A DNA stretch of 64,000 nucleotides from an uncultured Lachnospiraceae bacterium. Its GTDB lineage: Bacteria; Bacillota; Clostridia; Lachnospirales; Lachnospiraceae. The stretch spans positions 1 through 64,000 of the forward strand of contig CANQHX010000001.1 in assembly GCA_947623905.1 (NCBI GenBank). The letters run 5' to 3'. Below the pieces are notes generated by a model that made no database searches, was not told where the DNA came from, and saw nothing but the letters and a program-made list of their open reading frames with translations. Of this stretch, positions 37,622-63,176 are shown in pieces; position 1 is the stretch's first letter, and the number at the start of each line of letters is the position of its first letter. The translations under genes were made by a program, and so were the position numbers.

Positions 37622-37650
37622 TTGAATTTTACGGCATTGTATGGTAAAAT
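37622..37650 (+). promoter_or_regulatory. Candidate promoter of the rml genes
   Basis: TTGAAT (37622-37627), 17 bases and TAAAAT (37645-37650), 72 bases before rmlA. Confidence 0.5.
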
Positions 37651-37721
37651 TTTCTGCAGAGTATTTTTGGCAACAGGACAACAAGCCATTATTGAGAGCA
37701 TATATTGAAAGGAGTTTTTCC

Positions 37722-38600
37722 ATGAAAGGAATCATTCTTGCCGGGGGCTCCGGCACAAGGCTGTATCCGCTGACGATGGTCACATCCAAGCAGCTGCTGC
37801 CCATCTACGACAAGCCGATGATCTATTACCCTCTGTCCACCCTTATGCTGGCGGGGATCCGGGATATCCTCATTATCTCCACCCCTCAGGATCTGCCCAA
37901 TTTCAGACGGCTGCTGGGGGACGGCAGCCACTACGGCATCCATTTAAGCTACGCCGAGCAGCCTTCGCCTGACGGGCTGGCCCAGGCATTTATCATCGGC
38001 GAGGAATTTATTGCCGGCGACGCCTGCGCCATGGTGCTGGGAGACAATATCTTTTACGGCAGCGGACTGAAGAAGCATCTGCGGGACGCGGCGTCCAGAG
38101 AGAATGGCGCCACTGTGTTCGGCTACTATGTGGAGGATCCGGAGCGGTTCGGCATCGTGGAATTTGACGAGAACGGCAAGGCTGTCTCCATCGAGGAAAA
38201 GCCCGCCCATCCCAAGTCCAACTACTGTGTCACGGGACTGTATTTCTATGACAACAGAGTGTGCGAGTTCGCGAAGCAGGTGAAGCCTTCTGACAGAGGC
38301 GAGCTGGAGATCACGGATCTCAACCGCATGTATCTGGAGGACGGCAGTCTCAACGTGGTGACGCTGGGCAGAGGTTACGCGTGGCTGGATACCGGCACAG
38401 TGGATTCTCTTTCGGAAGCCACTGAGTTTGTGCGGGTCATCGAAGGCCGCCAGGGCATCAAGATCTCGGCGGTGGAGGAGATCGCCTACAAGAACGGCTG
38501 GATCGACAAGGAACAGCTGCTGGAGTCCGCAAAGCTCTACGGCAAATCTCCTTACGGACAGCATCTGCAGAAAGTAGCCGACGGCAAGTATAAATATTGA
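37722..38600 (+). CDS. rmlA: Glucose-1-phosphate thymidylyltransferase
   Basis: ATG 37722 with AAAGGAG (37708-37714); 292 residues. [44 protein letters not shown] and WLDTGT are the RmlA/RfbA motifs. It makes dTDP-glucose, step one of dTDP-L-rhamnose synthesis. Feedback inhibition by dTDP-rhamnose is usual in the family. Starts the tight cluster rmlA-C-B-D. Confidence 0.96.
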
Positions 38601-38620
38601 TGGATGGAAGGAACGATACC

Positions 38621-39172
38621 ATGAACGTGATCGAGACAGAAGTAAAAGATGTATACATCATTGAGCCTCAGGTGTTCGGGGACAACCGGGGCTGGTTTAT
38701 GGAGAGCTGGTCTCAAAAGAAGATGGAGGACGCCGGCCTGCACTATGAATTTGTGCAGGACAATCACTCCTATTCGTCCCAGAAGGGCGTGCTGCGGGGC
38801 CTTCATTTCCAGAAGGGAGCGGATGCACAGGCCAAGCTGGTGCGCTGCGTGCGTGGCGCCGTGCTGGACGTGGCGGTGGATATGCGCAAAGGCTCCCCTA
38901 CATATAAGAAATGGGTGTCTGTGGAGCTTTCCGCGGAGAATAACCGGCAGTTCCTCATTCCCAGGGGCTGTCTCCACGGGTTTGTGACCCTGACGGACGA
39001 TGTGGAGTTTTTGTACAAGGCGGACAATTTCTACGCGCCTGCGTCGGACCGGAACATCCGGTGGAACGATCCGGAGATCGGCGTGGACTGGGGGATCGAA
39101 AACCCTATCCTGTCGGAAAAGGACGCAAAAGCGCCGTTCTTAAAGGACAGCGACATTGATTTTGTATACTAA
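38621..39172 (+). CDS. rmlC: dTDP-4-dehydrorhamnose 3,5-epimerase
   Basis: ATG 38621 with GGAAGGA upstream, 20 bases after rmlA; 183 residues. Cupin fold with QDNHSYSSQKGVLRGLHFQ (catalytic His), VRCVRGAVLDVAVDMRKGSPTY, PRGCLHGFVTL and the Tyr-containing DNFYAP. Third enzyme of the dTDP-L-rhamnose pathway. Confidence 0.95.
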   Translation: MNVIETEVKDVYIIEPQVFGDNRGWFMESWSQKKMEDAGLHYEFVQDNHSYSSQKGVLRGLHFQKGADAQAKLVRCVRGAVLDVAVDMRKGSPTYKKWVSVELSAENNRQFLIPRGCLHGFVTLTDDVEFLYKADNFYAPASDRNIRWNDPEIGVDWGIENPILSEKDAKAPFLKDSDIDFVY

Positions 39173-39196
39173 AATGAAAGAGCAGAGGAGAAGATT

Positions 39197-40216
39197 ATGA
39201 ATATCATCGTGACCGGCGGCGCCGGCTTTATCGGCAGCAATTTCGTATTCCACATGCTGGACAAATATCCCGACTACCGGATCATCTGTCTGGATAAACT
39301 GACCTACGCGGGCAACATGTCTACCCTGGCGCCTGTCATGGACAATCCCAATTTCCGCTTTGTGAAGGCGGATATCTGCGACAGGGAGGCAGTAAATAAA
39401 CTGTTTGAGGAGGAGCATCCCGACATTGTGGTAAACTTTGCCGCGGAGTCCCATGTGGACCGTTCCATCGAGGACCCGGGCATTTTCCTCCAGACCAATA
39501 TCATCGGCACGGCCACCCTCATGGACGCCTGCCGCAAGTACGGCATCACAAGGTATCATCAGGTATCCACCGACGAGGTGTACGGAGATCTGCCTCTGGA
39601 CCGGCCTGACCTGTTCTTTACGGAGGAGACGCCGATCCATACCAGTTCTCCCTACAGCAGCTCCAAGGCCGGGGCCGACCTGCTGGTGCTGGCATACCAC
39701 CGCACCTACGGCCTGCCTGTGACCATCAGCCGCTGCTCCAACAACTATGGGCCGTATCATTTCCCGGAGAAGCTGATCCCTCTCATGATCGCCAACGCCC
39801 TCAATGACAAGCCTCTGCCCGTGTACGGCAAGGGCGAGAATGTCCGGGACTGGCTGTACGTGGAGGACCACTGCAAGGCCATCGATCTGATCATCCACAA
39901 GGGCAGGGTCGGGGAAGTATACAACATCGGCGGCCACAATGAGATGCGCAATATCGACATCGTAAAGCTCATCTGCAAAGAACTGGGCAAGCCGGAGAGC
40001 CTGATCACCTATGTGACGGATCGGAAGGGACACGACATGCGCTACGCCATCGATCCCGCCAAGATCCACAGGGAGCTGGGCTGGCTGCCGGAGACTATGT
40101 TTAAGGACGGCATCAAAAAGACCATCCAGTGGTATCTGGACCATCGTGACTGGTGGGAGGATATCATCAGCGGCGAATATCAGAATTACTATGAAAAAAT
40201 GTATGGCAACCGGTGA
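39197..40216 (+). CDS. rmlB: dTDP-glucose 4,6-dehydratase
   Basis: 339 residues, with GAGGAG before the ATG. TGGAGFIGSNFVFHML, AAESHVDRSIEDP, STDEVYGDL, Tyr/Lys in YSSSKAGADLLV, and RCSNNYGPYHFPEKLIPL are the RmlB signature. Second pathway enzyme, NAD-dependent. Confidence 0.96.
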   Translation: MNIIVTGGAGFIGSNFVFHMLDKYPDYRIICLDKLTYAGNMSTLAPVMDNPNFRFVKADICDREAVNKLFEEEHPDIVVNFAAESHVDRSIEDPGIFLQTNIIGTATLMDACRKYGITRYHQVSTDEVYGDLPLDRPDLFFTEETPIHTSSPYSSSKAGADLLVLAYHRTYGLPVTISRCSNNYGPYHFPEKLIPLMIANALNDKPLPVYGKGENVRDWLYVEDHCKAIDLIIHKGRVGEVYNIGGHNEMRNIDIVKLICKELGKPESLITYVTDRKGHDMRYAIDPAKIHRELGWLPETMFKDGIKKTIQWYLDHRDWWEDIISGEYQNYYEKMYGNR

Positions 40217-40227
40217 GGTAGATAGAA

Positions 40228-41094
40228 ATGAAAGTATTGGTGACAGGTGTTAAGGGCCAGCTTGGCTATGATGTGATGAAGGAGCTGGCAAAGCGTGATA
40301 TCCCCGCGGTGGGAGCGGATATTGAAGAATTTGACATTACCGATATGGAGCAGACCCGGAAGTTTATCACGGAAAGCGGCGCCGACGCGGTGATCCACTG
40401 TTCCGCCTATACCGCCGTGGACGCGGCGGAGGATAATCTGGAGCTGTGCAGAAGGGTCAACGGGGAAGGCCCGGGCAACATCGCCCTGGTATGTAAGGAG
40501 ATCGGCGCGAAGATGCTGTATATCAGCACCGACTATGTTTTTCCCGGCAGGGGAGAGCTGTTCTATGAGCCCGATGATCCTACAGGCCCCGCGGGAGCTT
40601 ACGGCATGACCAAGCTCCAGGGGGAGGAGGCCGTGAAGGCTGTTCTGGACAATTATTTTATCGTCCGCATTTCATGGGTGTTCGGCTTAAACGGCAAAAA
40701 CTTTGTCCGCACCATGCTCCGTCTGGGGGAGACCCATGACAAGCTGACCGTAGTGTGCGACCAGATCGGTTCCCCTACCTATACGGCGGATCTTGCTCCG
40801 CTGCTTGTGGACATGATCGGCACGGAAAAATACGGGGTCTACCATGCTACCAATGAGGGGATCTGCTCCTGGGCGGAATTTGCCGAGGAGATCTTCCGCC
40901 AGGCGGGCATGGAAGTAAAAGTGGTTCCCGTGACGACGGAAGAGTATGGCGCAAAGGCGCCCCGTCCCAAAAACTCCCGCATGTCCAAGGAAAAGCTGCT
41001 GGAGGCAGGCTTTTACAAGCTGCCCAGCTGGCAGGACGCATTGTCCAGATATCTGCGGGAGCTTTCGGAAGCTTCTGCTGAAGCGAAGGACTGA
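40228..41094 (+). CDS. rmlD: dTDP-4-dehydrorhamnose reductase
   Basis: 288 residues. TGVKGQLGYDVMKEL, VIHCSAYTAVDAAE, STDYVFPG, Tyr/Lys in YGMTKLQGEEAV and RISWVFG. Final step, yielding dTDP-L-rhamnose. Eleven bases after rmlB; ddl follows after 47 bases. Confidence 0.95.
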   Translation: MKVLVTGVKGQLGYDVMKELAKRDIPAVGADIEEFDITDMEQTRKFITESGADAVIHCSAYTAVDAAEDNLELCRRVNGEGPGNIALVCKEIGAKMLYISTDYVFPGRGELFYEPDDPTGPAGAYGMTKLQGEEAVKAVLDNYFIVRISWVFGLNGKNFVRTMLRLGETHDKLTVVCDQIGSPTYTADLAPLLVDMIGTEKYGVYHATNEGICSWAEFAEEIFRQAGMEVKVVPVTTEEYGAKAPRPKNSRMSKEKLLEAGFYKLPSWQDALSRYLRELSEASAEAKD

Positions 41095-49636: not shown

Positions 49637-51280
49637 ATGGGTACAAATCCTTCAAATGAAAAAAACAAGGGAAAAAAGACAAAAGCTGAAATTGTGAAAC
49701 AATACCATCTGCGGGAAGTTTCTTTCCTATGCAAATACGTCTTTTCTTTTATCCTTATCATACTTGCCTCCCAAAGGTCCGGACAGCTGACCTTCTGGTT
49801 TGGCACATTCGAACTGTTGCTGGCTGCGTTGCTGACAAATGTCATCAGAAAAGACATCGCAAGAAATATTTTTAACGACGTGCTGATCCTTTTATTGAAT
49901 GTGCAGATGTGCGTACTTCTGTACGGCAATACCTATGTGACGCTCGTCATGATCACAAATCTGGAACATATCCAGGATCTGACAGGCAGGGCCTCTTATG
50001 TGCTGGCGGCGATCTTTTCTGTGGGCTTTGCCTTTTTGCCGGTGAGGCGGATCAGGCTTAAGGCGCGCACATCTGTCCTGCTGACCGGTGTGCTTTCCCT
50101 GGAACTGATCTTCTGCATGTTTGCCGGGAACAGCTATTCTCCTTATTATGCGTATCTGGATCTGATCAGGCAGAGACAGGAGCGCTACGCGCTGAAAAAA
50201 CAGGCAGAAGAAGCAAATGTAGATAAAAGCTATTATTATAAAGAAAAGATAACCGGACATATAGACAAGCCTGTCAATCTGCCGGAACAGCCCAATGTAG
50301 TATGTATTTTTGTGGAAGGGCTGTCACAGAATATTGTGGAAGATCCCAGGGGGATCATGGAGAATGTGGCCGCCTATGAAAAAAAATCCCTGAATTTTAC
50401 CGATTATTTTAACCACACCTTTGCCACATTCAGGGGCATAAGCGGGCAGCTGTACAGCGGTTATCAGGAAAACAACTATGATGAAAATACCCTGATCTCC
50501 CTTCAGGATGTACTGAAGGACGAGGGGTACCATACTATATTTATCAATTCTGAGCCAAATAACACCATATTCACATCTTTTCTGGCCGATCTGGGATTTG
50601 ATACCCTGGTCAGCAACGTGGGACACGACTATGAAGGCCTGCTGGAATCCCTTTCCGACCGGGAAGCCTATGAGGAGTTGTTCCGCCAGATGGAACAGGC
50701 TTCGGGGGAAAAAGACCCCTTCTTTATCTCCATGTATACGTTCGGAACCCATGCTTCCTGGAATTCCGTGAATAAAAAATTCGGAGATGGAAGCGATCAG
50801 GAATTAAATAAGTTTTATGAAGCGGACTATTATTTCGGGGAATTTATGGAAAAATTTGAAAAGAGCGACATGGCGAAAGACACCATCATCGTGTTTACCT
50901 CGGATCACGCGACATATCAGGACGAAGGCTTTGATAAGGCATTTCCCAACGCGGACAGGACGGTAGTGGGTCTAGACCGTATTCCGCTTTTCTTCTATTA
51001 CAAAGGGATCGCTCCCGCTGATATAGACGCCAAGGGCCGCAATTCTCTGGACCTGGCGCCTACCATATGCGATTATCTGGATATTTCCGCGGAAAACTAT
51101 TTCCTTGGTGATTCCCTGTTTATGTCCGCGGAGCTGAATAATAATTACGACACGGTATACAGCAGCGAGTCTGACGTGTACACTACCAGAGGCGGCGTGA
51201 TCACGACGCTGCCGAAGGAAACGGAAGATATTTTTCTGGACGGCCTGTACGGTTATTTCTACATTAAACAGGGAGAATGA
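49637..51280 (+). CDS. LtaS-like phosphoglycerol transferase
   Basis: 547 residues. About five membrane helices in residues 25-170, then an extracytoplasmic sulfatase-fold domain. Motifs: PNVVCIFVEGLSQNI (metal Glu), the Thr segment NHTFATFRGISGQLYSG (T261/T264), SMYTFGTHASW and VFTSDHATY. It has the LTA-synthase arrangement and likely transfers phosphoglycerol to a lipid or glycan acceptor. It opens the operon and ends four bases before the next gene. Confidence 0.87.
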   Translation: MGTNPSNEKNKGKKTKAEIVKQYHLREVSFLCKYVFSFILIILASQRSGQLTFWFGTFELLLAALLTNVIRKDIARNIFNDVLILLLNVQMCVLLYGNTYVTLVMITNLEHIQDLTGRASYVLAAIFSVGFAFLPVRRIRLKARTSVLLTGVLSLELIFCMFAGNSYSPYYAYLDLIRQRQERYALKKQAEEANVDKSYYYKEKITGHIDKPVNLPEQPNVVCIFVEGLSQNIVEDPRGIMENVAAYEKKSLNFTDYFNHTFATFRGISGQLYSGYQENNYDENTLISLQDVLKDEGYHTIFINSEPNNTIFTSFLADLGFDTLVSNVGHDYEGLLESLSDREAYEELFRQMEQASGEKDPFFISMYTFGTHASWNSVNKKFGDGSDQELNKFYEADYYFGEFMEKFEKSDMAKDTIIVFTSDHATYQDEGFDKAFPNADRTVVGLDRIPLFFYYKGIAPADIDAKGRNSLDLAPTICDYLDISAENYFLGDSLFMSAELNNNYDTVYSSESDVYTTRGGVITTLPKETEDIFLDGLYGYFYIKQGE

Positions 51281-53133: not shown

Positions 53134-54813
53134 ATGATGAATAAGATAAAAAAAGCCTTCAGCCTGTTGCGGCAGCAGGGCCCGGGAACATTCGCGGGCA
53201 CGGTGCGCCGGTACTGCAGGGAGAAAAAGGAGGAGAAGGCGCAGCTTGCCCTCGCCCGGTCCTTTCATCTGATCTCCGGGCAGGAGCGGGCAGCACAGCG
53301 GCAGGCCGTTTTTCAGGATCCGCTTACCTTCAGCATTTTAACCCCCCTGTTTAACACGCCCCGGACCTATCTGACGGAACTTCTGGATTCCCTGGCGGCC
53401 CAGACGTATGGCGACTGGCAGCTTTGTCTCTATGACGCAAGCGACGACGCCCACGCCTATGTGGGGCAGATCTGCAGAGAGCGGGCGGCGGCCGATCCCC
53501 GTATTTCCTATGAGAAAGCGGAAAAAAATCTGGGCATCTCCGGCAATACCAACGCCTGCCTTCGCATGGCAAAAGGAACGTACATCGGTCTGCTGGACCA
53601 CGACGACATACTGCATGAGTCCGCCCTGTATGAGATGCGCAGCGCCATTGAGGCGCGTCAGGCGGATTTCCTGTATTCCGACGAGGTAAAATTTTCCGAT
53701 GCCGTGGAAAATGCCCGTGACTTTAATTTCAAACCGGATTTCGGAAAGGATGAGCTGCGCTCTCACAACTTCATCTGTCATTTTACCGTGTTTCAGCGCA
53801 GCCTGTTAAATGATATGGAGGATGCCTACCGCCCGGCGTTTGACGGCAGCCAGGACCATGATATGGTGCTGCGGCTGACGGAGCGGGCAGCCAGGATCGT
53901 GCATATCCCGAAGGTGCTGTACTATTGGCGGGTGCATCCCGAATCGGTGTCCATGAATCTGGACTCCAAGAGCTATGCGGTGGACGCTGCCATCCGTGCT
54001 ATTCAGGAGCAGCTGGACCGCACCGGGGAGCGGGGAACGGTTGCCAGCAACCTGCCCTACCGGACCATATACCGGGTGCGCTATCAGGTGCCTCCCGGCG
54101 CGAAGGTGACCGTGTTTTTGCACGGCTGCCGGGATCAGGCCCACTATGAGCAGGCACGGCAGAGGCTTGCCGCCTGCACCGCCTGGCCGGATGTGGAGAT
54201 CCTGCCCCTGTACGGGACGGACGGCGGGGAAACGCTGGGCGCCCTTTTGAACAGGCAGATAAGCCAGGCGTCAGGAGCGTACATCGCGCTGCTTCACGCG
54301 GACTGTGAGATGACCACGGCAGAGTGGGCAGAGGAAATGCTCATGTTTGCCATCCGGCCGGATGTGTGCGCTGTGTCCCCGAAGATCTGTTACGAGGATG
54401 GGACGATCTGCTATGCCGGGCTGGCCATGGACGGGGAGTCGCCCTCCGGCCTGCGGTTTCCGGGGCGGGGCACGCCGGATACGGACCAGGGCTTTGAGGC
54501 CATGCTGCGCCATGTGCGCAATACCACGGCGGCGTGGAATATCTGCTGTATGTTTTCCAGGAAGACGTACGAAAGTCTTGAGGGATTTGCGGAGGATATG
54601 GACGGATATGAGGCGGCAGATCTCTCTCTCAGGGGCGTGCAGGCAGGAAAATGGAATGTTTGGACGTGTTTTGCCGGCGGCATACTGCGGGACAGAAGTC
54701 TTGACCAGAGCGGCGCTCTCATGCCCGCCGCGTTTGCCGGGAGATGGCGTCCGGTGCTGGACGCGCCGGATCCCTTTGTGAATCCTGCCTTAAAAAAGCT
54801 CAACATCTTATAA
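53134..54813 (+). CDS. Second two-domain GT2 glycosyltransferase
   Basis: 559 residues. Domain 1 (about 65-290) is closely similar to that of the upstream gene (FSILTPLFNTPRTYLTELLDSLAAQTYGDWQLCLYDASD; NLGISGNTNACLRMAKGTYIGLLDHDDIL; FKPDFGKDELRSHNFICHF). Domain 2 (about 310-540) is degenerate at its start (VTVFLHGCRDQAHYEQARQRL) but keeps GAYIALLHADCEMTT. The two probably arose by tandem duplication. It likely adds rhamnose or another sugar during backbone synthesis. Confidence 0.87.
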   Translation: MMNKIKKAFSLLRQQGPGTFAGTVRRYCREKKEEKAQLALARSFHLISGQERAAQRQAVFQDPLTFSILTPLFNTPRTYLTELLDSLAAQTYGDWQLCLYDASDDAHAYVGQICRERAAADPRISYEKAEKNLGISGNTNACLRMAKGTYIGLLDHDDILHESALYEMRSAIEARQADFLYSDEVKFSDAVENARDFNFKPDFGKDELRSHNFICHFTVFQRSLLNDMEDAYRPAFDGSQDHDMVLRLTERAARIVHIPKVLYYWRVHPESVSMNLDSKSYAVDAAIRAIQEQLDRTGERGTVASNLPYRTIYRVRYQVPPGAKVTVFLHGCRDQAHYEQARQRLAACTAWPDVEILPLYGTDGGETLGALLNRQISQASGAYIALLHADCEMTTAEWAEEMLMFAIRPDVCAVSPKICYEDGTICYAGLAMDGESPSGLRFPGRGTPDTDQGFEAMLRHVRNTTAAWNICCMFSRKTYESLEGFAEDMDGYEAADLSLRGVQAGKWNVWTCFAGGILRDRSLDQSGALMPAAFAGRWRPVLDAPDPFVNPALKKLNIL

Positions 54814-54836
54814 CCATACGATTTAGGAGAAAAAAC

Positions 54837-57020
54837 ATGTCAATAATAAAGACAATGGCATCGAAATCAGCCCGTATCCTCCGGGAGGAGGGAGTGACAG
54901 GATTTGTGCGGAAAGGGAAAAATTATATCTATCATCAGTACTATATCCGCAAGCATCCCCAGCCCAGGGCAGATCAGGTGTTTAAGGATGTGCTGTTCAT
55001 CAACGGGTGTGATGAGAGCGTGCCCCATCCTGCCCGTTACCGGGTGACCCATCAGCGGGAACAGCTTGCCGCCAACCATGTTTCCAGCGGAGAGGTGTAT
55101 TACGCCAATCTTACGCTGGATCAGGTCCGTTTTTACCGAACTTTTATTTTTTTCCGCTGTCCGTACACGGACATGATCGGAGAGTTTATAAAGCTTGCCA
55201 AAAAACTCAACAAGCATGTGCTGTTTGATATCGACGACCTGGTGGTGGACACCCGATATACGGATACCATCAAATACCTGGATTCCATGACAAAAGAAGA
55301 ACGGGATCTCTATGACGACGGCGTTCGCCGCATGGGAAAGACGCTGAAGCTGTGCGATGCTGCCATTACCACCACCGAGCGCCTGGCCGAGGAACTGGGC
55401 CATTATGTGCCGGAGGTGTTCATCAACCGCAATACGGCCTCCGAGGAGATGTGGGGCCTGTCCAATGAGGCGCTGAAGAACAAAAAAGAGGATCCGGAGC
55501 ATGTGCGCATCGGATATTTCAGCGGCAGCCTGACCCACAACGACGATTTTCTCATGATCCTCCCTGCCCTCATACGGGTGATGGAACAATATCCTCAGGT
55601 GCAGCTCCACGTGGTGGGAGAGCTGGATCTGCCGGAGGAACTGAAGCAGTTTGCGGACCGGATCGTGTCTCATCCTTTTATGGACTGGCGCAGGCTGCCG
55701 GAGCTGATCGCCGGGGTGGATATCAATCTGGCGCCTCTTGAGCAGAGTATCTTCAATGAGGCAAAGTCTGAAAATAAATGGGTGGAGGCGGCGCTGGTGG
55801 AGACCCCTACGGCAGCCAGCAATGTGGGCGCTTTTGCCCGGATGATAGAGCATGGAGAGACGGGTATGCTGTGCAGTACCCGGGAGGACTGGGAAAAAGC
55901 ACTTTCTGCGCTTGTGGCGGACAGAGACCTGCGGGTGCGGCTGGCGAAAAATGCCCGCCGTTACTGCACCAGGCACTGCGTGACCGTATATACGGGACGC
56001 CCCCTGACGCAGTTCCTGCAAAAATACACGACACCCAATATCGCTTTTGTGCTGCCGTCCATGAATATCAGCGGCGGCATCATGGTGGCCATCCGCCATG
56101 CCCGCTTTCTGCAGCAGGAGGGCTGGGACGTGATGCTGATGAACGTGGACGCGTCCGTGGAATGGTACATGGAGGGAGACTGCCAGATGCCGGTGCTCTC
56201 TCAGGAGCTGCAGTTTCTGGGCGGCAGGATCGACCGTGCCGTGGCGACCATGTGGACGACCGTTACGTTTCTGGAGCAGTACCACAACATTGAAAAGCGC
56301 TACTATCTGGTGCAGAATTTTGAGACGGATTTTTATGAGCCGGGGATCGCGCTGCGGGTGTTTGCCAACATGAATTACCTGCCCCATGTGCCGGTGCAGT
56401 TCCTGACCATTTCCAGGTGGTGCCAGCAGTGGCTTCTGGAGGATTACGGCCAGGAAGCCCGCTACGCGCCCAACGGCATGGAGCGCGGCCGGTTTGCGCC
56501 CCACAGGCGGACATTTGACGGACGGGTCCGCATCCTCATCGAGGGGGACTGCGCCGTGGAGTATAAAAATGTGGATGAGAGCTTCCGCATCGTGGAAAAG
56601 CTGGATCCCGAAAGATTTGAGGTCTGGTACATGTCCTACAACGCCCAGCCCAAGTCCTGGTACCGTGTGGACAAGTTTCTGCACCAGGTTCCTTATGAGA
56701 AGGTCCATGAGGTCTATCAGCAGTGCGACATCCTGTTAAAGACCAGCTATCTGGAGAGCTTTTCCTACCCCCCGCTGGAGATGATGGCCACCGGCGGCTA
56801 CGCCGTGGTAGTGCCAAACGGCGGCAACAGGGAATATCTGGAGGACGGAAAAAACTGCCTGCTGTATCCGCTTGGACAGATCGACCAGGCGGTGGCGGCC
56901 ATTGAGCGTCTCTGCGGCGACAGTGCTCTGCGGGAACGGCTGTATGCAGGCGGGCAGGAGACGGCAGAGAGCCGGGACTGGGAGACGGTCCGCCGGCAGA
57001 TCGTAGCGTTGTATGAGTAG
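54837..57020 (+). CDS. Large glycosyltransferase with two GT4 modules
   Basis: ATG 54837 with AGGAG (54824-54828); 727 residues. Module 1 (to about 415) has HVLFDIDDLVVDTRYT, RIGYFSGSLTHNDDF and the donor site NKWVEAALVETPTAASNVGAF. Module 2 (about 420-727) has PNIAFVLPSMNISGGIMVAIRHARFL (GGxMVA acceptor loop) and LESFSYPPLEMMATGGYAVVVPNGGNREYL. Two modules in one chain suggest two alternating linkages or a polymerase, as in WbdA-type enzymes. The stop overlaps the permease start. Confidence 0.88.
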   Translation: MSIIKTMASKSARILREEGVTGFVRKGKNYIYHQYYIRKHPQPRADQVFKDVLFINGCDESVPHPARYRVTHQREQLAANHVSSGEVYYANLTLDQVRFYRTFIFFRCPYTDMIGEFIKLAKKLNKHVLFDIDDLVVDTRYTDTIKYLDSMTKEERDLYDDGVRRMGKTLKLCDAAITTTERLAEELGHYVPEVFINRNTASEEMWGLSNEALKNKKEDPEHVRIGYFSGSLTHNDDFLMILPALIRVMEQYPQVQLHVVGELDLPEELKQFADRIVSHPFMDWRRLPELIAGVDINLAPLEQSIFNEAKSENKWVEAALVETPTAASNVGAFARMIEHGETGMLCSTREDWEKALSALVADRDLRVRLAKNARRYCTRHCVTVYTGRPLTQFLQKYTTPNIAFVLPSMNISGGIMVAIRHARFLQQEGWDVMLMNVDASVEWYMEGDCQMPVLSQELQFLGGRIDRAVATMWTTVTFLEQYHNIEKRYYLVQNFETDFYEPGIALRVFANMNYLPHVPVQFLTISRWCQQWLLEDYGQEARYAPNGMERGRFAPHRRTFDGRVRILIEGDCAVEYKNVDESFRIVEKLDPERFEVWYMSYNAQPKSWYRVDKFLHQVPYEKVHEVYQQCDILLKTSYLESFSYPPLEMMATGGYAVVVPNGGNREYLEDGKNCLLYPLGQIDQAVAAIERLCGDSALRERLYAGGQETAESRDWETVRRQIVALYE

Positions 57021-58439
57021 AAATCAAGAGGGAAAGGCACAGGGTCAGAGAAGCATGTCAAAGAAAAAGATGGCGGTGTTCGCCGCCGTGATCTTGTTGG
57101 GGATCCTGACAAATATAGTGATCTTCCGGTATATCAAGCCGGATACGCAGGCAGGCTACAAATTTATATTTACCATAGAGGCGGACCAGGCCCAGACGTA
57201 TCAGCTGTATTACCGGTCTGATCAGACCATTGACTGGGACGCGGTGCGCAGTGTGCAGTCAGATTATGACAGGCCGGGAGAACCGGAGACATTTACCTTT
57301 TACCTGCCCAACGAAGCACGCTATCTCCGCTTTGATTTCGGGACTGTGCCGGGTGTACATACCCTGTCTGATGTGCGGATCGGCAGCGGCTCCCAGGACC
57401 TTCTCCTGGATCCCGGCCGGATGCTTACGGGGACCCAGACCTTTATGCTGGACGTGCTGCGGGAGCAGGACGGGGCGATCTATGCCGTTACCAACGGGGA
57501 CGACAGCTCCTTTACCTTTGACATCACGAACATAGACCTGGAAGCATTTCTGCTGGAGGCCCAGAGGGTCCCCACGCTGCTGGCCAATGTGGGGCGCTGC
57601 CTGCTGGTGGATCTGACGCTTCTGATGCTGCTGGTGTTTTATGCTCCCTTCAAGGAGCTGGCGATGGATGTGCTCCGCAGCAGAAAGCTCCTGATGAATC
57701 TGGCAAAAAATGATTTCAAGACCAAATACGCCGGCTCTTATCTGGGCATCATATGGGCGTTCATCCAGCCCATCGTTACGGTGCTGGTCTACTGGTTCGT
57801 GTTTGAGGTAGGCTTCCGGTCCGGTCCGGTGATGGATGTGCCCTGGGTGCTCTGGCTCATCGCCGGCATCGTTCCGTGGTTTTCTTCAGCGACGCCTTAA
57901 ACGGCGGCACCTCCAGCATGATCGAGTACAGTTATCTGGTGAAGAAGGTAGTCTTTCAGATCGACATCCTGCCTATCGTGAAGATCGTGTCAGCGCTGTT
58001 TGTGCATATTTTCTTTGTGGCGTTCATCATCTTTGTGTACGCCCTCAACGGGTTTTTACCGACGCTTTATATCATACAGGTGGTCTATTATTCCTTCTGC
58101 ATGTTTGTGTTCGTGCTGGGCTTGAGCTACATCACCAGCGCGGTGGTGGTCTTTTTCAGGGATCTGGGGCAGATCATCAACATTCTGCTGCAGGTGGGCA
58201 TCTGGCTGACCCCTATCATGTGGCAGGAAACCATGATGGGAGAGGGGATCCGATGGGTGCTGAAGCTGAATCCGGTATACTATGTGGTCAACGGCTACCG
58301 GGAGGCCTTTATCTCAAAAGAATGGTTCTGGACCAATCCCACCCAGCTGATCTATTTCTGGTTTGTGACGGTGCTCGTCTTTGCGCTGGGCATGACCATG
58401 TTCCGGCGGCTCAGAGTGCATTTCGCGGACGTGCTGTGA
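57013..58439 (+). pseudogene. ABC-2 polysaccharide exporter permease (Wzm/TagG-like), split by a -1 frameshift
   Basis: The 5' frame runs 57013-57900 (ATG 57055 is an alternative start); the 3' frame runs 57876-58439. The first ends IAGIVPWFSSATP and stops; the second continues with FFSDALNGGTSSMIEYSYLVKKVVFQ. One extra T in the run at 57880-57883 would join them as PWFFFSDALNGG, the usual sequence of the family. The join gives about 475 residues: an unusual N-terminal part (one helix, ~130 extracytoplasmic residues, a second helix near 205), then the six-helix ABC-2 domain with AKNDFKTKYAGSYLGIIWAF. It should partner the ATPase at 58621. The frameshift could be a sequencing error, a real inactivation, or a slippage switch. 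Confidence 0.85.
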
Positions 58440-58590: not shown

Positions 58591-58620
58591 TCGCGCAAAC
58601 GCTCCGGAATGAGGAATGAT

Positions 58621-59901
58621 ATGGAGGATTACGCGATCCGCGTAGCGGATGTGACAAAATTATATAAGCTGTACAACAAGCCCAGCGACCGGCTGAAGGA
58701 ATCCCTGAAGCTGACACGGAAGAAAAACTATCAGGAGCATTACGCCCTGCGGAATGTGAGTATCGATATCCGCAGGGGCGAGACGGTGGGCATCATCGGC
58801 ACAAACGGCTCCGGAAAATCCACCCTGCTGAAGATCATCACCGGCGTGCTGAACCAGACGTCCGGGGACGTGCAGGTGAACGGACGTATTTCCGCCCTTC
58901 TGGAGCTGGGCGCCGGGTTCAACGGCGAGTATACGGGTATTGAGAATGTGTACCTCAACGGGACGATGATCGGCTTTACCCGGGAGGAGATCGATGAGCG
59001 GCTGGAGGACATCCTGGAGTTTGCCGACATCGGAGATTTTGTGTATCAGCCGGTGAAGACCTATTCCAGCGGTATGTTCGTGCGGCTGGCTTTCGCCGTG
59101 GCCATCAATATCGATCCGGAGATCCTTATCGTGGACGAGGCGCTGTCGGTGGGAGACGTGTTTTTCCAGGCCAAATGCTTCCACAAATTTGAGGAATTTA
59201 AGAAGCAGGGCAAGACTATTGTGTTCGTGAGCCACGATCTGGGCAGCGTCAACAAATACTGCGACCGGGTCATCCTGCTGAACCGGGGCGTGAAGCGCGC
59301 CGAGGGCGACCCGAAGGAAATGATCGATCTGTACAAGAAGATCATGGTAAATCAGGACGACGGAGAGGATACACAGGATACGGCCGCGCCGGAGGAGGAA
59401 GAGCCGGAGGATGATACCGGCGTCCTCTGGAAGAGCAGGATGGTGGAAAACCCCAGCTGCTCCCGATACGGCACCGGCGAGGCGGATATCATAGATTACT
59501 GCATCATGGATGCAAAGGGGAATATCACCAACATGATCAGCAAGGGGGACACCTTTACGATCCGGATGAAGGTGCGTTTCCATCAGGATATACGCGGCCC
59601 CATCATGGCCTACACCATACGGGACAGGCACGGCACGGAGATCACCGGCACCAATACCATGTACGAGGGACTGGATCTGGGGCTGGTGAAAAAGGGCAGC
59701 ACCCGGGTGGTATCCTTTACCCAGAAGATGGAGCTGAAGGGCGGGGAATATCTGGTCTGCCTGGGCTGCACCGGGTTTGTGAACGGCAAGTTTGACGTGT
59801 ACTGCCGTCTGTACGAGGTGTGCGTGCTGCAGAATATTTCCGACAAAAACATCGTAGGCTATTACGACATGGAATCCCGCGTGAAGGTCAAGGAAGGATA
59901 G
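58621..59901 (+). CDS. Polysaccharide ABC exporter ATPase with C-terminal carbohydrate-binding-type domain (Wzt-like)
   Basis: ATG 58621 with GAGGA upstream; 426 residues. The ABC domain has Walker A GTNGSGKST (60-68), LLELGAGFNGEYTGIENVYLNG (typical of Wzt/TagH), signature YSSGMFVRLAFAVA and Walker B ILIVDEALSVGD. After an acidic linker (about 247-275) comes a ~150-residue beta-sandwich like Wzt-C (GEADIIDYCIMDAKGN...FTIRMKVRFHQDI...IRDRHGTEITGTNTM). In E. coli O9a this domain recognises the capped end of the polymer. Such a domain predicts a non-reducing-end cap, matching the next two genes. Confidence 0.92.
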   Translation: MEDYAIRVADVTKLYKLYNKPSDRLKESLKLTRKKNYQEHYALRNVSIDIRRGETVGIIGTNGSGKSTLLKIITGVLNQTSGDVQVNGRISALLELGAGFNGEYTGIENVYLNGTMIGFTREEIDERLEDILEFADIGDFVYQPVKTYSSGMFVRLAFAVAINIDPEILIVDEALSVGDVFFQAKCFHKFEEFKKQGKTIVFVSHDLGSVNKYCDRVILLNRGVKRAEGDPKEMIDLYKKIMVNQDDGEDTQDTAAPEEEEPEDDTGVLWKSRMVENPSCSRYGTGEADIIDYCIMDAKGNITNMISKGDTFTIRMKVRFHQDIRGPIMAYTIRDRHGTEITGTNTMYEGLDLGLVKKGSTRVVSFTQKMELKGGEYLVCLGCTGFVNGKFDVYCRLYEVCVLQNISDKNIVGYYDMESRVKVKEG

Positions 59902-59920: not shown

Positions 59921-60841
59921 ATGGACGGGAAATTGGAAAATGAGCGTATCGGCGGTTTTTCGCTGAATTATCAGTTTTACTCCGGGGAGGACCGTTACAG
60001 CGACGGCGATATCGAGGAGGAGATGCTGCAGGTATGCAGGGAAAAGCGGCAGGCGCAGGCGCTGAAAGAGCAGCCTTCCTGGCCCATGCTCTATCACCTG
60101 TCCCCTGCCAGGGAAAATCTGCTGGAGTGGTATGATTTCCTTCCCGGCGGGTCGCTGCTGGAGGTCGGGTCAGGCTGCGGCGCCCTCACGGGACTGTTTG
60201 GCCGGCGCCTGGACCGGGTCGTGTGCATCGAGCTTTCCCGCAGGCGTTCCCTGATCAACGCCTGCAAAAACGGGGACAGCGCTTCCGCGGAGATCTATGT
60301 GGGGAATTTTGAGGACATCGTCCTGGAGGAGACATTTGACTATGTGACCCTCATCGGGGTGCTGGAGTACGCCAGATCCTACATTTCCGGGGAAAAGCCC
60401 TTTCACGCCATGTTAAGGCGGGTGGGAGAACGCCTTCGCCCCGACGGCAGTCTTATCATTGCTATAGAGAACAAGATGGGGATGAAATATTTTTCCGGCG
60501 CGGCGGAGGATCACACGGGCAGGCCCTATGACGGCATCCAGAACTATATCGGCGGTTCCGGCGCGGTGACTTTTTCCAGACCGGAGCTTCAGGCACTTCT
60601 GGAAGAATGCGGGTACAGGGATCTGACCTTTTATTACCCGGTACCGGACTATAAGCTGCCGTCGGCTGTGTATTCTGACGCGTACCTGCCGGGACGGGGG
60701 GAACTGCGCAATATCAAGCGGGCCTACGCGGGAGAAAATCTCCAGATGTTTGACGAGGAAGTGGCCTTTGACAGAGTATGTGAGGACGGGCTGTTTCCCT
60801 ATTTCGCAAATTCCTTTCTGGTCATTGCAAAAAAGGGATGA
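59921..60841 (+). CDS. SAM-dependent methyltransferase (candidate chain-capping enzyme)
   Basis: 306 residues, with AAAGGAG before the ATG. Class I fold: motif I LLEVGSGCGALTGLFG (about 86-100), acidic RVVCIELSRRRSLIN, IYVGNFEDI and FDYVTLIGVLEYAR. The rest resembles the methyltransferase part found fused to kinases in chain terminators (FSRPELQALLEECGYRDLTFYYPVPDYKLP). Sits between the Wzt-like ATPase and the kinase/coiled-coil gene, 15 bases from the latter. Substrate is inferred. Confidence 0.88.
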   Translation: MDGKLENERIGGFSLNYQFYSGEDRYSDGDIEEEMLQVCREKRQAQALKEQPSWPMLYHLSPARENLLEWYDFLPGGSLLEVGSGCGALTGLFGRRLDRVVCIELSRRRSLINACKNGDSASAEIYVGNFEDIVLEETFDYVTLIGVLEYARSYISGEKPFHAMLRRVGERLRPDGSLIIAIENKMGMKYFSGAAEDHTGRPYDGIQNYIGGSGAVTFSRPELQALLEECGYRDLTFYYPVPDYKLPSAVYSDAYLPGRGELRNIKRAYAGENLQMFDEEVAFDRVCEDGLFPYFANSFLVIAKKG

Positions 60842-60856
60842 GAGGTTGAGTGCCGT

Positions 60857-62107
60857 ATGAGAACAGTCATTTACAGCAAATACAATCAGAGCAGGACCCC
60901 CAGGTTTCAGACAAAGACGCTCATCTGTCAGGAGGAAGGACGGCAGTACATTGAAAAGCGTCCCCTGAATGAGGAGGCCGCCGCCCATATCCGTCAGTTT
61001 CGGGACAATTATGAGCAGGTAAAAGATCTGTATCCCGCCATCCGTCTGGTGGAAGGGACTTTTGAAGAGGATTGTGTGCGCTATCCGTTTGTCCGGGGCA
61101 CCGGCCTGGAGGAAGCGCTGTGCCGGGGATTGTCTTCCTGGGAGGAATTGTTCGCGCGGATGAAGCAGATCTTTTCAAAGCTGTACGCGGCAGCTCCAAA
61201 GAACCGGTGCGAGTTTGCCTCCACCGGCGGATTTGCGGAAATGTTCGGAGAAGCGGACTGCAGCGGGATGGAATGTATCTCCCCCTGCAATCTGGATGTG
61301 ATCTTCGACAATCTGGTGCTGCTGCCCGACGGCTCGGTAACCGCCTTCGACTATGAGTGGGTGTGTGATTTCCCTGTGCCGGAGCGCTATGTGATCTACC
61401 GGATCCTCTGCCATTTTTATGATAAATATCTGGCAGAGATCTCCGCCAGATACACGTTCGCCGCTTTTGTGGCGGAATTTGACTTTACAGACCGGGAACT
61501 GACCGTATTCCGGCAGATGGAGGACGCATTTATCCGGTACGCCTATACAGGGGGCGAGCCGGCCTTCACGGACGCCCGTTACCAGAAAAAACGGGTCACC
61601 CTGGAAGAACTGGAGGACCACGCTTCGCTGGTGAAGGAGCGCGAGGAGGCCATCGCGCGCTATCAGGAGGTGCTGCAGGTGCTCCACGATACGGAAAAGG
61701 AATATCTGCTCACCATAGACCGTCTCAACGAGGCGGTGCGGATCAAGGAAGAAGTAGAACAGGTGCTCCATGATACAGAGAAGGAATATCTGCTCACCAT
61801 AGACCGTCTCAATGACGCGGTGCGGATCAAGGAAGAGGCGGAAGGACTGCTCCACAACACGGAGAAGGAATACTTGCTTACCATAGACCGTCTCAACGAG
61901 GCGGTGCGGATCAAGGACGAGATGTACGCCCAGCTCATGCAGGCCAACGAGATGCTTGCCGGCGTGAACCGGGCTTACGGGGAGACAAGCGCGGCCCTGC
62001 AGCAGAGCCGTGAGGAATGTCAGCGTATGCGCGCTTCCGTTTCCTGGAAGGTGACAAAGCCTCTGCGCGGCGTCGGACGGGCGCTTGGCCGCGGAAAGAA
62101 ACAATGA
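60857..62107 (+). CDS. Kinase-like protein with a repeat-built coiled coil (WbdD-type terminator/ruler candidate)
   Basis: 416 residues. Residues 1-250 are a protein-kinase/APH-like fold: Lys in YIEKRPL (K34), hinge YPFVRGTGLEEAL, catalytic Asp and metal Asn in LDVIFDN (D147, N152), and a DFG-equivalent DYEW (D165). Residues ~252-385 form a coiled coil containing three 28-residue tandem repeats (275-302, 303-330, 331-358), each exactly four heptads. The C-terminus (ASVSWKVTKPLRGVGRALGRGKKQ) is a basic amphipathic helix suited to bind the membrane. WbdD of E. coli O9a has the order methyltransferase, kinase, coiled coil, membrane helix; here the methyltransferase is a separate gene. Confidence 0.82.
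   Translation: MRTVIYSKYNQSRTPRFQTKTLICQEEGRQYIEKRPLNEEAAAHIRQFRDNYEQVKDLYPAIRLVEGTFEEDCVRYPFVRGTGLEEALCRGLSSWEELFARMKQIFSKLYAAAPKNRCEFASTGGFAEMFGEADCSGMECISPCNLDVIFDNLVLLPDGSVTAFDYEWVCDFPVPERYVIYRILCHFYDKYLAEISARYTFAAFVAEFDFTDRELTVFRQMEDAFIRYAYTGGEPAFTDARYQKKRVTLEELEDHASLVKEREEAIARYQEVLQVLHDTEKEYLLTIDRLNEAVRIKEEVEQVLHDTEKEYLLTIDRLNDAVRIKEEAEGLLHNTEKEYLLTIDRLNEAVRIKDEMYAQLMQANEMLAGVNRAYGETSAALQQSREECQRMRASVSWKVTKPLRGVGRALGRGKKQ
61679..61930 (+). repeat. Three tandem 84-bp repeats in the coiled coil
   Basis: Copies at 61679-61762, 61763-61846 and 61847-61930, nearly identical at the DNA level. Each encodes [VL]LH[DN]TEKEYLLTIDRLN[ED] followed by AVRIK[ED]E and three variable residues. The period of 28 residues equals four heptads, so gain or loss of a copy keeps both frame and coiled-coil register. 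Confidence 0.95.
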
Positions 62108-62144
62108 GGACCGCGATGTTTTTACGTATGGGGGTGTAAGATCT

Positions 62145-63176
62145 ATGAAGGTCAGAAATTTTGTACAGGAATTTATCGCAGAGGAAGAAGGAAAACCCTT
62201 CGACAGCTGTCACGCCGCCACGCTGCTGCAGCTGGAGGATGACGTAGTGCTGGCCGCGTGGTTCGGCGGCAGTCATGAAAAGGGCCCGGATGTGGATATC
62301 TGGGTATCCAGACGGGTGAACGGAGCGTGGGAATTTCCCCGCAGGGCGGCCCAGGTGCGGGCTGTCGCCATGTGGAACCCGGTGCTGTTCCGGAAACAGG
62401 ACGGCACGGTCGTACTGTTTTTCAAGGTGGGCGCTGCCATTCCCATATGGAAGACTTATTTTGTGGAGAGCCGGGACGGCGGCGAGACCTTTACCGATCC
62501 TCAGGAACTGGTGCCGGGGGACTGCTCCGGCGGAAGGGGCCCGGTGAAGAACAAGCCGATCCGTTTAAAGGACGGTACCGTGCTGGCCCCTGCTTCCTTT
62601 GAGGGAGATACATGGGACGCTTTTGTGGACATTTCCACAGACGACTGCGCGACGTGGGAGATGAGCAGCCTTGTGCCCGTGCGCCGCGCGGGGACGGACT
62701 CCAGAGTCATGCACCGTCCTTACAACAAGCTCTGCCTGTTCGGCAAGGGCGTCATCCAGCCCACTCTGTGGCAGGATGACAAGGGGGACGTGCACATGTT
62801 CATGCGCAGCACCAGCTCCCGGATCTTCCGCAGCGACTCCGCCGACGGGGGACGTACCTGGTGTACCGCCTATGATACCGGCCTGCCCAACAATAACAGC
62901 GGCATCGATCTGGTGCGCATGAACAACGGCGACATCGTCCTGGTGTACAATCCCAGGGAAAATCTGCCCGGTATGTTCAACGGCCCCCGCACACCCCTGA
63001 CGGTGGCGGTGTCGAAGGACAACGGCGGGACCTTTACCCACCTGATCGATCTGGAGACCCAGGAGGGCGCTTACTGTTACCCCGCCGTGATCTGCAATGA
63101 TAAGAATGAAGTGCTGATCGCTTATACCTGGCAGCGGAAGAATATGGTATTCTGCAAGCTGGAGTATGAGGAGTGA
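62145..63176 (+). CDS. Sialidase-fold BNR protein without signal peptide
   Basis: ATG 62145, 37 bases after the ruler gene; 343 residues. Six-bladed-propeller type, with Asp boxes SRDGGETF, SADGGRTW and SKDNGGTF, and the sialidase-like segments SCHAATLLQLEDDVVLAAWFGG and NNNSGIDLVRMNNGDIVLVYN. There is no secretion signal, so it would act in the cytoplasm. Either it cleaves an imported or internal glycan, or it is a family member with another hydrolase, lyase or binding activity. No sialic acid catabolic genes are nearby. Confidence 0.82.
   Translation: MKVRNFVQEFIAEEEGKPFDSCHAATLLQLEDDVVLAAWFGGSHEKGPDVDIWVSRRVNGAWEFPRRAAQVRAVAMWNPVLFRKQDGTVVLFFKVGAAIPIWKTYFVESRDGGETFTDPQELVPGDCSGGRGPVKNKPIRLKDGTVLAPASFEGDTWDAFVDISTDDCATWEMSSLVPVRRAGTDSRVMHRPYNKLCLFGKGVIQPTLWQDDKGDVHMFMRSTSSRIFRSDSADGGRTWCTAYDTGLPNNNSGIDLVRMNNGDIVLVYNPRENLPGMFNGPRTPLTVAVSKDNGGTFTHLIDLETQEGAYCYPAVICNDKNEVLIAYTWQRKNMVFCKLEYEE

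What the first reader, a model, noticed from the sequence alone, without database searches (positions are those of the whole stretch)
59921..62107. Split WbdD-like terminator with a repeat-built molecular ruler in a Gram-positive bacterium
Seen: an exporter ATPase with a Wzt-C-like domain, a stand-alone methyltransferase, and a kinase-fold protein carrying a long coiled coil and a basic C-terminal helix, in that order. Known: in E. coli O9a, WbdD (methyltransferase + kinase + coiled coil + membrane helix) caps the polymannose, its coiled coil sets chain length as a ruler, and Wzt-C recognises the cap. Inference: the same capping, measuring and recognition logic operates here, with methyltransferase and kinase on separate genes, on a rhamnose-containing polymer in a cell without an outer membrane. 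I know of no described system of this form.
Basis: partly seen in the sequence, partly recalled or inferred. Interest (0 to 1): 0.92.

Follow-up and report, generated by a model that had tools for sequence, protein, structure and literature searches.

The report
Split sugar-chain capping enzyme pair
A gut bacterium without an outer membrane carries a two-gene version of the kinase-plus-methyltransferase "cap" enzymes that Gram-negative bacteria use to stop and measure surface sugar chains, and relatives of this unannotated kinase occur in about half of the genera of its family (Lachnospiraceae).

Summary
Wzm, Wzt with a Wzt-C domain, a stand-alone methyltransferase (MT), and a kinase-fold protein (KIN) with a coiled coil built from three 28-residue repeats lie in one run. 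Sequence databases do not recognise KIN, but its predicted fold is that of aminoglycoside/choline phosphotransferases, and the kinase triad (K34, D147xxxxN152, D165) is invariant in its family. MT and KIN are an obligate pair: in 27 loci picked by KIN alone, MT was fused or adjacent in all 27, and a Wzt-C protein was present in 25. The true relative is not WbdD but the K. pneumoniae O7 terminator ORF6 (MT + phosphotransferase-like kinase + coil + rhamnosyltransferases), shown in vitro to add methyl-phosphate to rhamnose. Pseudomonas and Citrobacter homologues bridge the two. KIN divergence tracks Wzt-C divergence and not the ATPase domain of the same protein, as expected if Wzt-C reads the kinase's cap. 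Among close orthologues the coil differs only by whole heptads (2, 3 or 4 units). So capping, measuring and export logic in a Gram-positive is well supported as inference; the cap chemistry and the ruler are untested. Wzm is frameshifted in this assembly. Verdict: new variant of a known kind, widespread and unannotated.

The parts
57013..58439 (+). Wzm, export permease; read as two ORFs 57013-57900 and 57876-58439 because of a 1-base shortening of a T-run at 57880-57883 relative to L013; carries a ~230-residue N-terminal extension before the permease domain
   Evidence: (ABC2_membrane on second ORF)
58609..59901 (+). Wzt: export ATPase with C-terminal Wzt-C carbohydrate(cap)-binding domain (residues 285-421)
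59921..60841 (+). MT: stand-alone SAM-dependent methyltransferase, predicted to methylate the terminal phosphate (by homology to ORF6-O7)
60857..61546 (+). KIN kinase domain (residues 1-230), APH/choline-kinase-like fold; K34, D147, N152, D165xEW
61622..62035 (+). coiled coil of KIN (residues about 256-393), about 20 nm if one continuous coil
61676..61927 (+). three tandem 84-nt (28-residue, 4-heptad) repeats inside the coil
62036..62104 (+). basic amphipathic C-terminal segment with motif SVSWKVTKPLR, putative membrane/polymerase docking end
53134..54813 (+). GT2-type glycosyltransferase, candidate chain polymerase; its homologue is fused to the C-terminal end of KIN-coil in L014 and L065
51285..53072 (+). 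GT2-type glycosyltransferase (two domains) of the same cluster
54744..57020 (+). two-domain GT1/GT4-type glycosyltransferase, weak WsaF_C similarity; homologue next to KIN-GT fusion in L014, L065
31520..34640 (+). mannose-1-phosphate guanylyltransferase, GDP-mannose 4,6-dehydratase and a reductase-like protein: probable GDP-D-rhamnose supply
37641..41094 (+). RmlA, RmlC, RmlB, RmlD: dTDP-L-rhamnose supply

Best explanation
The pair MT + KIN is a two-gene chain terminator of the K. pneumoniae O7 ORF6 type, serving a rhamnose-containing polymer that is built on a lipid in the cytoplasm and exported by Wzm/Wzt. The glycosyltransferases extend the chain at the membrane. KIN sits with its C-terminal basic helix at the membrane/polymerase end and its kinase head about 20 nm away at the tip of the coil, so only chains long enough to reach the head are phosphorylated on their last sugar. 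MT then methylates that phosphate, which stops growth, and Wzt-C recognises the capped end and licenses export. Shown here by computation: the parts, the kinase fold and active-site residues, the obligate MT-KIN pairing, the Wzt-C domain, homology to the O7-type terminators, KIN/Wzt-C co-divergence, and heptad-unit coil changes. Inferred: the chemistry (phosphate, then methyl-phosphate), the acceptor sugar, the ruler role, the membrane docking, and the trans complex of MT with KIN.
For: KIN: APH(3')-type fold Z 12.4 over about 200 residues; R13, K34, D147, N152, D165, E167, W168 invariant in 27 relatives. Homology to the characterised terminator: a profile of fused Lachnospiraceae MT-KIN proteins matches a Pseudomonas 1457-aa protein across both domains (E 5.2e-66) and a Citrobacter O-antigen-cluster protein (best domain E 4.9e-67). 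The Pseudomonas protein has Y28, Y66, G91, G93, E112 and Y158 exactly where the paper places them in ORF6-O7, and a catalytic-type Asp at 443 against O7 D441, whose Ala mutant is inactive. MT-KIN pairing: 27/27 KIN-selected loci (10 fused, 17 adjacent) and 48/54 MT-selected loci; Wzt-C in 25/27. A fused relative models as one compact two-domain protein, pTM 0.86. Wzt-C: PF14524 and 2r5o. Co-divergence in 38 deduplicated loci: KIN~Wzt-C given NBD, partial r 0.49, 0/1000 permutations; KIN~NBD given Wzt-C, -0.01; KIN~Wzt-C given Wzm, 0.53. Ruler: 2, 3 and 4 units in L013, window and L014, differences 21 and 28 residues; independent 21- and 28-residue tandems in L024 and L030. KIN-coil is fused to GT2 in many relatives.
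Against: No chemistry is shown for any Gram-positive member. The actual ORF6-O7 sequence was not on hand, so its link rests on bridge proteins and published residue numbers. Some fused MT-KIN relatives (L023, L026, L027, L037) have almost no coil, so a coil is not needed for capping and may be only an oligomerisation stalk. MT does not co-diverge with Wzt-C. Three MT loci with sequence left downstream show no recognisable KIN next to MT (L025, L029, L041). Wzm is frameshifted in this assembly, so export may be broken in this strain or the assembly is wrong.
Confidence: 0.72

Rival explanations
1. Cap without ruler: MT and KIN cap the chain as above, but the coil only holds the enzyme as a dimer or trimer and ties it to the polymerase or membrane; chain length is set by enzyme ratio.
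For: Relatives with fused MT-KIN and almost no coil exist (L023, L026, L027, L037). In WbdD the first coil helix drives trimer formation (PMC3482155).
Against: Close orthologues change coil length only by whole heptads through tandem 28-residue units, and independent lineages built coils from 21- or 28-residue tandems; in WbdD coil length sets chain length (PMC11231755).
Confidence: 0.4
2. Phosphate-only or cyclic-phosphate cap plus a separate methylation: KIN leaves a phosphate cap like the one on the C. difficile Ox247 S-layer rhamnan, while MT methylates a sugar hydroxyl (as E. coli O8 or WsaE do).
For: A modified, possibly cyclic, phosphate on a terminal rhamnose is reported for an ABC-exported Gram-positive glycan (PMC6254364); MT is uncoupled from Wzt-C divergence.
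Against: MT and KIN are inseparable (27/27) and homologous to ORF6-O7, which methylates the phosphate (PMC11231755).
Confidence: 0.2
3. True WbdD descendant that split into two genes.
For: Same order MT - kinase - coil - basic helix; Foldseek aligns WbdD structures over about 552 columns of the fused model, ranks 25-30, E about 3e-9.
Against: TM-score only 0.2; KIN and MT-KIN profiles list no WbdD chain; the best structural neighbours of KIN are APH enzymes.
Confidence: 0.05
4. KIN is a choline- or amino-sugar-type kinase for decorating the polymer, unrelated to termination.
For: LicA choline kinase is among the structural matches.
Against: No LicC/LicD-like neighbours among the cluster genes scanned with Pfam; obligate linkage to MT and Wzt-C; homology to the O7 terminator.
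Confidence: 0.05

Closest known systems
K. pneumoniae O7 terminator ORF6 (PMC11231755)
   Same: Methyltransferase + phosphotransferase-like kinase without database annotation + coiled coil, with Wzm/Wzt and rhamnosyl GT2 modules; homologous MT and kinase domains through Pseudomonas and Citrobacter relatives; same named SAM-site residues.
   Different: O7 is one large protein with GT2 modules and a carbohydrate-binding domain in a Gram-negative LPS pathway; here MT and KIN are separate genes, the CBM is absent, GT2 is separate, the coil is a tandem repeat, and the host has no outer membrane.
E. coli O9a / K. pneumoniae O3 WbdD (PMC3482155)
   Same: Logic and order of parts: MT, kinase, coil, amphipathic end, paired with Wzt-C.
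   Different: WbdD kinase is of the eukaryotic protein-kinase type; no sequence similarity was detected; WbdD is a single protein acting on mannan.
Geobacillus stearothermophilus WsaE / Wzm-Wzt S-layer glycan (PMC2943079)
   Same: Gram-positive, ABC-exported rhamnan, cap at the non-reducing end, MT next to rhamnosyltransferases.
   Different: 2-O-methyl cap, no kinase, length determinant unknown.
Clostridium difficile Ox247 S-layer glycan (PMC6254364)
   Same: Gram-positive, dTDP-rhamnose, ABC exporter, phosphate on the terminal rhamnose proposed to end synthesis.
   Different: Phosphate possibly cyclic, responsible enzyme not named; no MT or kinase described in the text searched.
Aquifex aeolicus Wzm/Wzt (PMC9445017)
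   Same: Wzt ATPase and cap-binding domain homologous to the window Wzt.
   Different: Cap is 3-O-methyl mannose/rhamnose, no phosphate.

Membership tests
O7-type MT-kinase chain terminators (ORF6-O7) | Homologous MT domain with the SAM-site residues Y28, Y66, G91, G93, E112, Y158 | tested here: met
   Same columns in window MT: Y26, Y58, G83, G85, E104, Y150; Pseudomonas bridge has them at the O7 numbers
O7-type MT-kinase chain terminators (ORF6-O7) | APH/AmiN-like kinase domain with catalytic Asp (D441 in O7) | tested here: met
   APH fold Z 12.4; D147 aligned to Pseudomonas D443, two residues from the O7 number; direct O7 sequence not available
O7-type MT-kinase chain terminators (ORF6-O7) | MT and kinase acting as a pair (fused) | tested here: met
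   Adjacent genes here; fused or adjacent in 27/27 KIN-selected loci
O7-type MT-kinase chain terminators (ORF6-O7) | Coiled coil after the kinase | tested here: met
O7-type MT-kinase chain terminators (ORF6-O7) | Adds methyl-phosphate to the terminal rhamnose | not testable with these tools
   needs enzyme assay and NMR
WbdD | Order MT - kinase - coil - amphipathic end | tested here: met
   met as two adjacent genes
WbdD | Detectable sequence similarity to WbdD | tested here: not met
   no WbdD chain listed for MT-KIN or KIN profiles against all PDB sequences (one search lists 60 of 66 hits)
WbdD | Eukaryotic protein-kinase-type kinase domain | tested here: inconclusive
   best structural matches are APH enzymes; absence of WbdD from the list is not proof
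WbdD | Phosphate-binding H132, H133, R203 in the MT | not tested
   WbdD sequence not available to align
Capped-polymer Wzt (Wzt-C carbohydrate-binding domain) | NBD plus C-terminal PF14524 domain | tested here: met
   E 2.2e-40; profile hits 2r5o, E 1.3e-12
WsaE-type methyl-cap terminators | MT fused to two rhamnosyltransferase domains, no kinase | tested here: not met
   MT is a 306-aa stand-alone protein followed by a kinase gene

The most novel reading that the evidence does not exclude
About half of Lachnospiraceae genera use an unannotated two-part phospho-methyl capping machine as a core checkpoint for a Gram-positive surface polymer, and in the window lineage its length dial is digital: each in-frame gain or loss of an 84-nt, four-heptad repeat adds or removes about 4 nm of ruler and so changes chain length by a fixed step.
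Probability: 0.4. Interest if true: 0.78.

Novelty: new variant of a known kind. Interest (0 to 1): 0.62.

Why it matters
Length control and export licensing of surface polymers are understood in detail only for Gram-negative O antigens. A homologous capping kinase that no Pfam or NCBIfam model recognises, present in 106 of 200 sampled Lachnospiraceae genera, would carry that mechanism into a dominant gut family and make Gram-positive polymer length, end groups and antigenicity directly testable. The repeat-unit coil offers a natural series (2, 3, 4 units) for testing the molecular-ruler idea, and the KIN/Wzt-C co-divergence suggests that the kinase's product is what the exporter reads.

Tried and rejected
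Pfam, NCBIfam and PDB sequence searches for a kinase signature in KIN: nothing. PDB profile searches for WbdD: not listed. WbdD structures do not appear among the 50 rows of the VIA-align list for KIN; this is not evidence of a different fold. Search for KIN on plasmids: none. Looking for the O7-like gene in E. coli by DNA: none. MT matches in three unannotated faecal 'Bacteriophage sp.' records were judged probable bacterial fragments and not followed. Literature searches for a described Gram-positive MT-kinase terminator found none; the library lacks most subscription journals.

Full report
OBSERVATION. The window belongs to a Lachnospiraceae-type genome of 2.41 Mb. In order on the + strand lie Wzm (two ORFs, see below), Wzt 58609-59901, MT 59921-60841 and KIN 60857-62107, with gaps of 19 and 15 nt between the last three. 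Wzt has the ABC ATPase and PF14524 Wzt_C domains. A profile of Wzt-C domains from 16 loci has the E. coli O9a Wzt-C crystal structure 2r5o as its best PDB hit (E 1.3e-12). MT is a class I methyltransferase. KIN is recognised by neither Pfam nor NCBIfam, and no Pfam kinase model matches any of 27 relatives.

KINASE FOLD. AlphaFold2 with 27 relatives gives a confident domain at residues 1-230 (block pLDDT mostly above 90), then helices 256-331 and 338-411. Foldseek and VIA-align 2 put it with aminoglycoside, macrolide and choline phosphotransferases (APH(3')-Ia Z 12.4, rmsd 4.1 over 202 residues). Across the family R13, K34, D147xxxxN152 and D165xEW are invariant, the pattern expected of a working phosphotransferase (established knowledge of the APH/kinase superfamily). 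A shared fold alone does not show function.

COIL AND C-TERMINUS. Residues 256-393 follow a heptad pattern (a/d 67% hydrophobic against 32%; 1 of 2000 shuffles equals it). Inside it are three 84-nt direct repeats, each 28 residues or four heptads. The end, SVSWKVTKPLRGVGRALGRGKKQ, has a high hydrophobic moment and charge +5; the SWK-T-PLR motif recurs after the coil in L013, L014 and L065.

PAIRING. In 54 loci found through MT, KIN is fused in 22 and adjacent in 26; of the six without, L040 and L055 stop at or just after MT. To avoid selection bias I took 27 loci chosen by KIN alone from Lachnospiraceae genomes: MT was fused in 10 and adjacent in 17, so 27 of 27, and a Wzt-C protein was present in 25, next to MT in 22. 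In many relatives KIN is also fused at its other end to GT2 glycosyltransferases; in L014 and L065 that GT2 is the homologue of the window's 53134-54813 gene.

WHICH KNOWN FAMILY. WbdD structures are found by Foldseek for the fused model, aligned over about 552 columns, but with TM-score 0.2, and the profiles find no WbdD chain by sequence. Literature gives a better match: K. pneumoniae O7 ORF6 contains an MT, an unannotated 223-residue domain resembling the aminoglycoside-type kinase AmiN, a CBM, a coil and two GT2 modules. It phosphorylates and then methylates O-3 of a terminal rhamnose, and D441A kills the kinase (PMC11231755). I searched for Gram-negative bridges with a fused Lachnospiraceae protein and found a Citrobacter braakii plasmid O-antigen cluster (rml genes, wzm, wzt, a 649-aa MT-KIN-coil protein, GTs) and a Pseudomonas asturiensis 1457-aa MT-KIN-coil-GT2 protein. 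The MT-KIN profile spans both domains of the Pseudomonas protein (E 5.2e-66) and matches the Citrobacter protein in two pieces. The Pseudomonas protein has exactly the residues named for O7 (Y28, Y66, G91, G93, E112, Y158) and a catalytic-type Asp at 443 beside O7's 441; these map to Y26, Y58, G83, G85, E104, Y150 of the window MT and D147 of KIN. Some Lachnospiraceae and Clostridium relatives also carry a domain after the kinase that weakly resembles the Pseudomonas segment in the O7 CBM position.

COUPLING TO EXPORT. In 38 loci deduplicated at 60% KIN identity, KIN distances correlate with Wzt-C distances after removing the ATPase-domain signal (partial r 0.49, 0 of 1000 permutations; Spearman 0.31, 0 of 1000) and after removing Wzm (0.53). 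KIN shows no correlation with the ATPase domain once Wzt-C is removed (-0.01). The jackknife range is 0.45-0.52. MT does not show the effect (0.02). This is what is expected if the kinase's acceptor specificity and Wzt-C see the same terminal sugar while MT sees mainly the phosphate; that reading is inference. Partial Mantel tests can be liberal, and the ATPase domain is more conserved than the others (0.70 mean identity), which is why Wzm (0.51) was used as a second control.

RULER. The two closest orthologues carry 2 units (L013) and 4 units (L014, fused to GT2) against 3 in the window. The distances from kinase end to the SWK motif are 130, 151 and 179 residues, so differences are 21 and 28, all multiples of seven. 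Unrelated tandems of 21 (L024) and 28 residues (L030) arose in other lineages; all five detected tandems have periods that are multiples of seven. This fits selection to keep the coil in register while its length changes, the property of a ruler, but is also compatible with a stalk. Relatives with almost no coil exist.

DISTRIBUTION. KIN is found in 106 of 200 Lachnospiraceae genera sampled (85 of 164 good genomes), but in only three genomes outside the family in a Bacillota-wide sample of 299, plus a Patescibacteria MAG (Woykebacteria, L058) with MT-KIN-Wzm-Wzt. It is therefore not a curiosity of one genome.

PRECEDENT IN GRAM-POSITIVES. Geobacillus WsaE caps an exported rhamnan with 2-O-methyl, with the length determinant unknown (PMC2943079). 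C. difficile Ox247 puts a modified, possibly cyclic, phosphate on the terminal rhamnose of an ABC-exported glycan (PMC6254364). So Gram-positive capping is known; a kinase-methyltransferase terminator with a coil in Gram-positives was not found in the library searched.

CAVEATS. No chemistry. The O7 sequence itself could not be retrieved. The polymer is not identified; both GDP-D-rhamnose and dTDP-L-rhamnose genes are in the window. Wzm reads as two ORFs because a T-run at 57880-57883 is one base shorter than in L013; whether this is real or an assembly error is open.

VERDICT. Observation confirmed; interpretation right in logic, wrong in lineage, and too strong on novelty. New variant of a known kind, widespread and unannotated, with clear tests.

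Noticed in passing
window 57013-58439: The permease gene Wzm is split by a single-base shortening of a T-run (57880-57883) relative to L013, where the gene is intact; real inactivation, phase variation or assembly error cannot be told apart.
   Followed up: partly
window 57013-57700; L013 3233-4639: This Wzm has a roughly 230-residue N-terminal extension before the permease domain with no Pfam match, present in some relatives (L013, L014, L032, L038, L059) and absent in others; possibly an extracytoplasmic domain.
   Followed up: no
window 34738-36594 and 49637-51280: Two membrane sulfatase-fold (PF00884, LTA-synthase/phosphoglycerol-transferase-like) proteins flank the polysaccharide genes, hinting at glycerol-phosphate decoration of the polymer.
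   Followed up: no
window 62085-63176: BNR_2 (sialidase-like repeat) protein directly after KIN; its longest reading frame overlaps the end of KIN, so the true start is probably further in.
   Followed up: no
L058 337-4252: A Patescibacteria (Woykebacteria) MAG carries MT-KIN-Wzm-Wzt, so the module reaches outside Bacillota and Pseudomonadota.
   Followed up: partly
L042-L054 (Eisenbergiella and relatives), L032, L039, L059: A beta-type domain of about 140-170 residues after KIN weakly resembles the segment of the Pseudomonas protein in the position of the O7 carbohydrate-binding module; in Eisenbergiella it ends the protein with no long coil.
   Followed up: partly
L025, L029, L041: MT without a recognisable KIN next to it although sequence continues downstream; possibly methyl-only terminators.
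   Followed up: no
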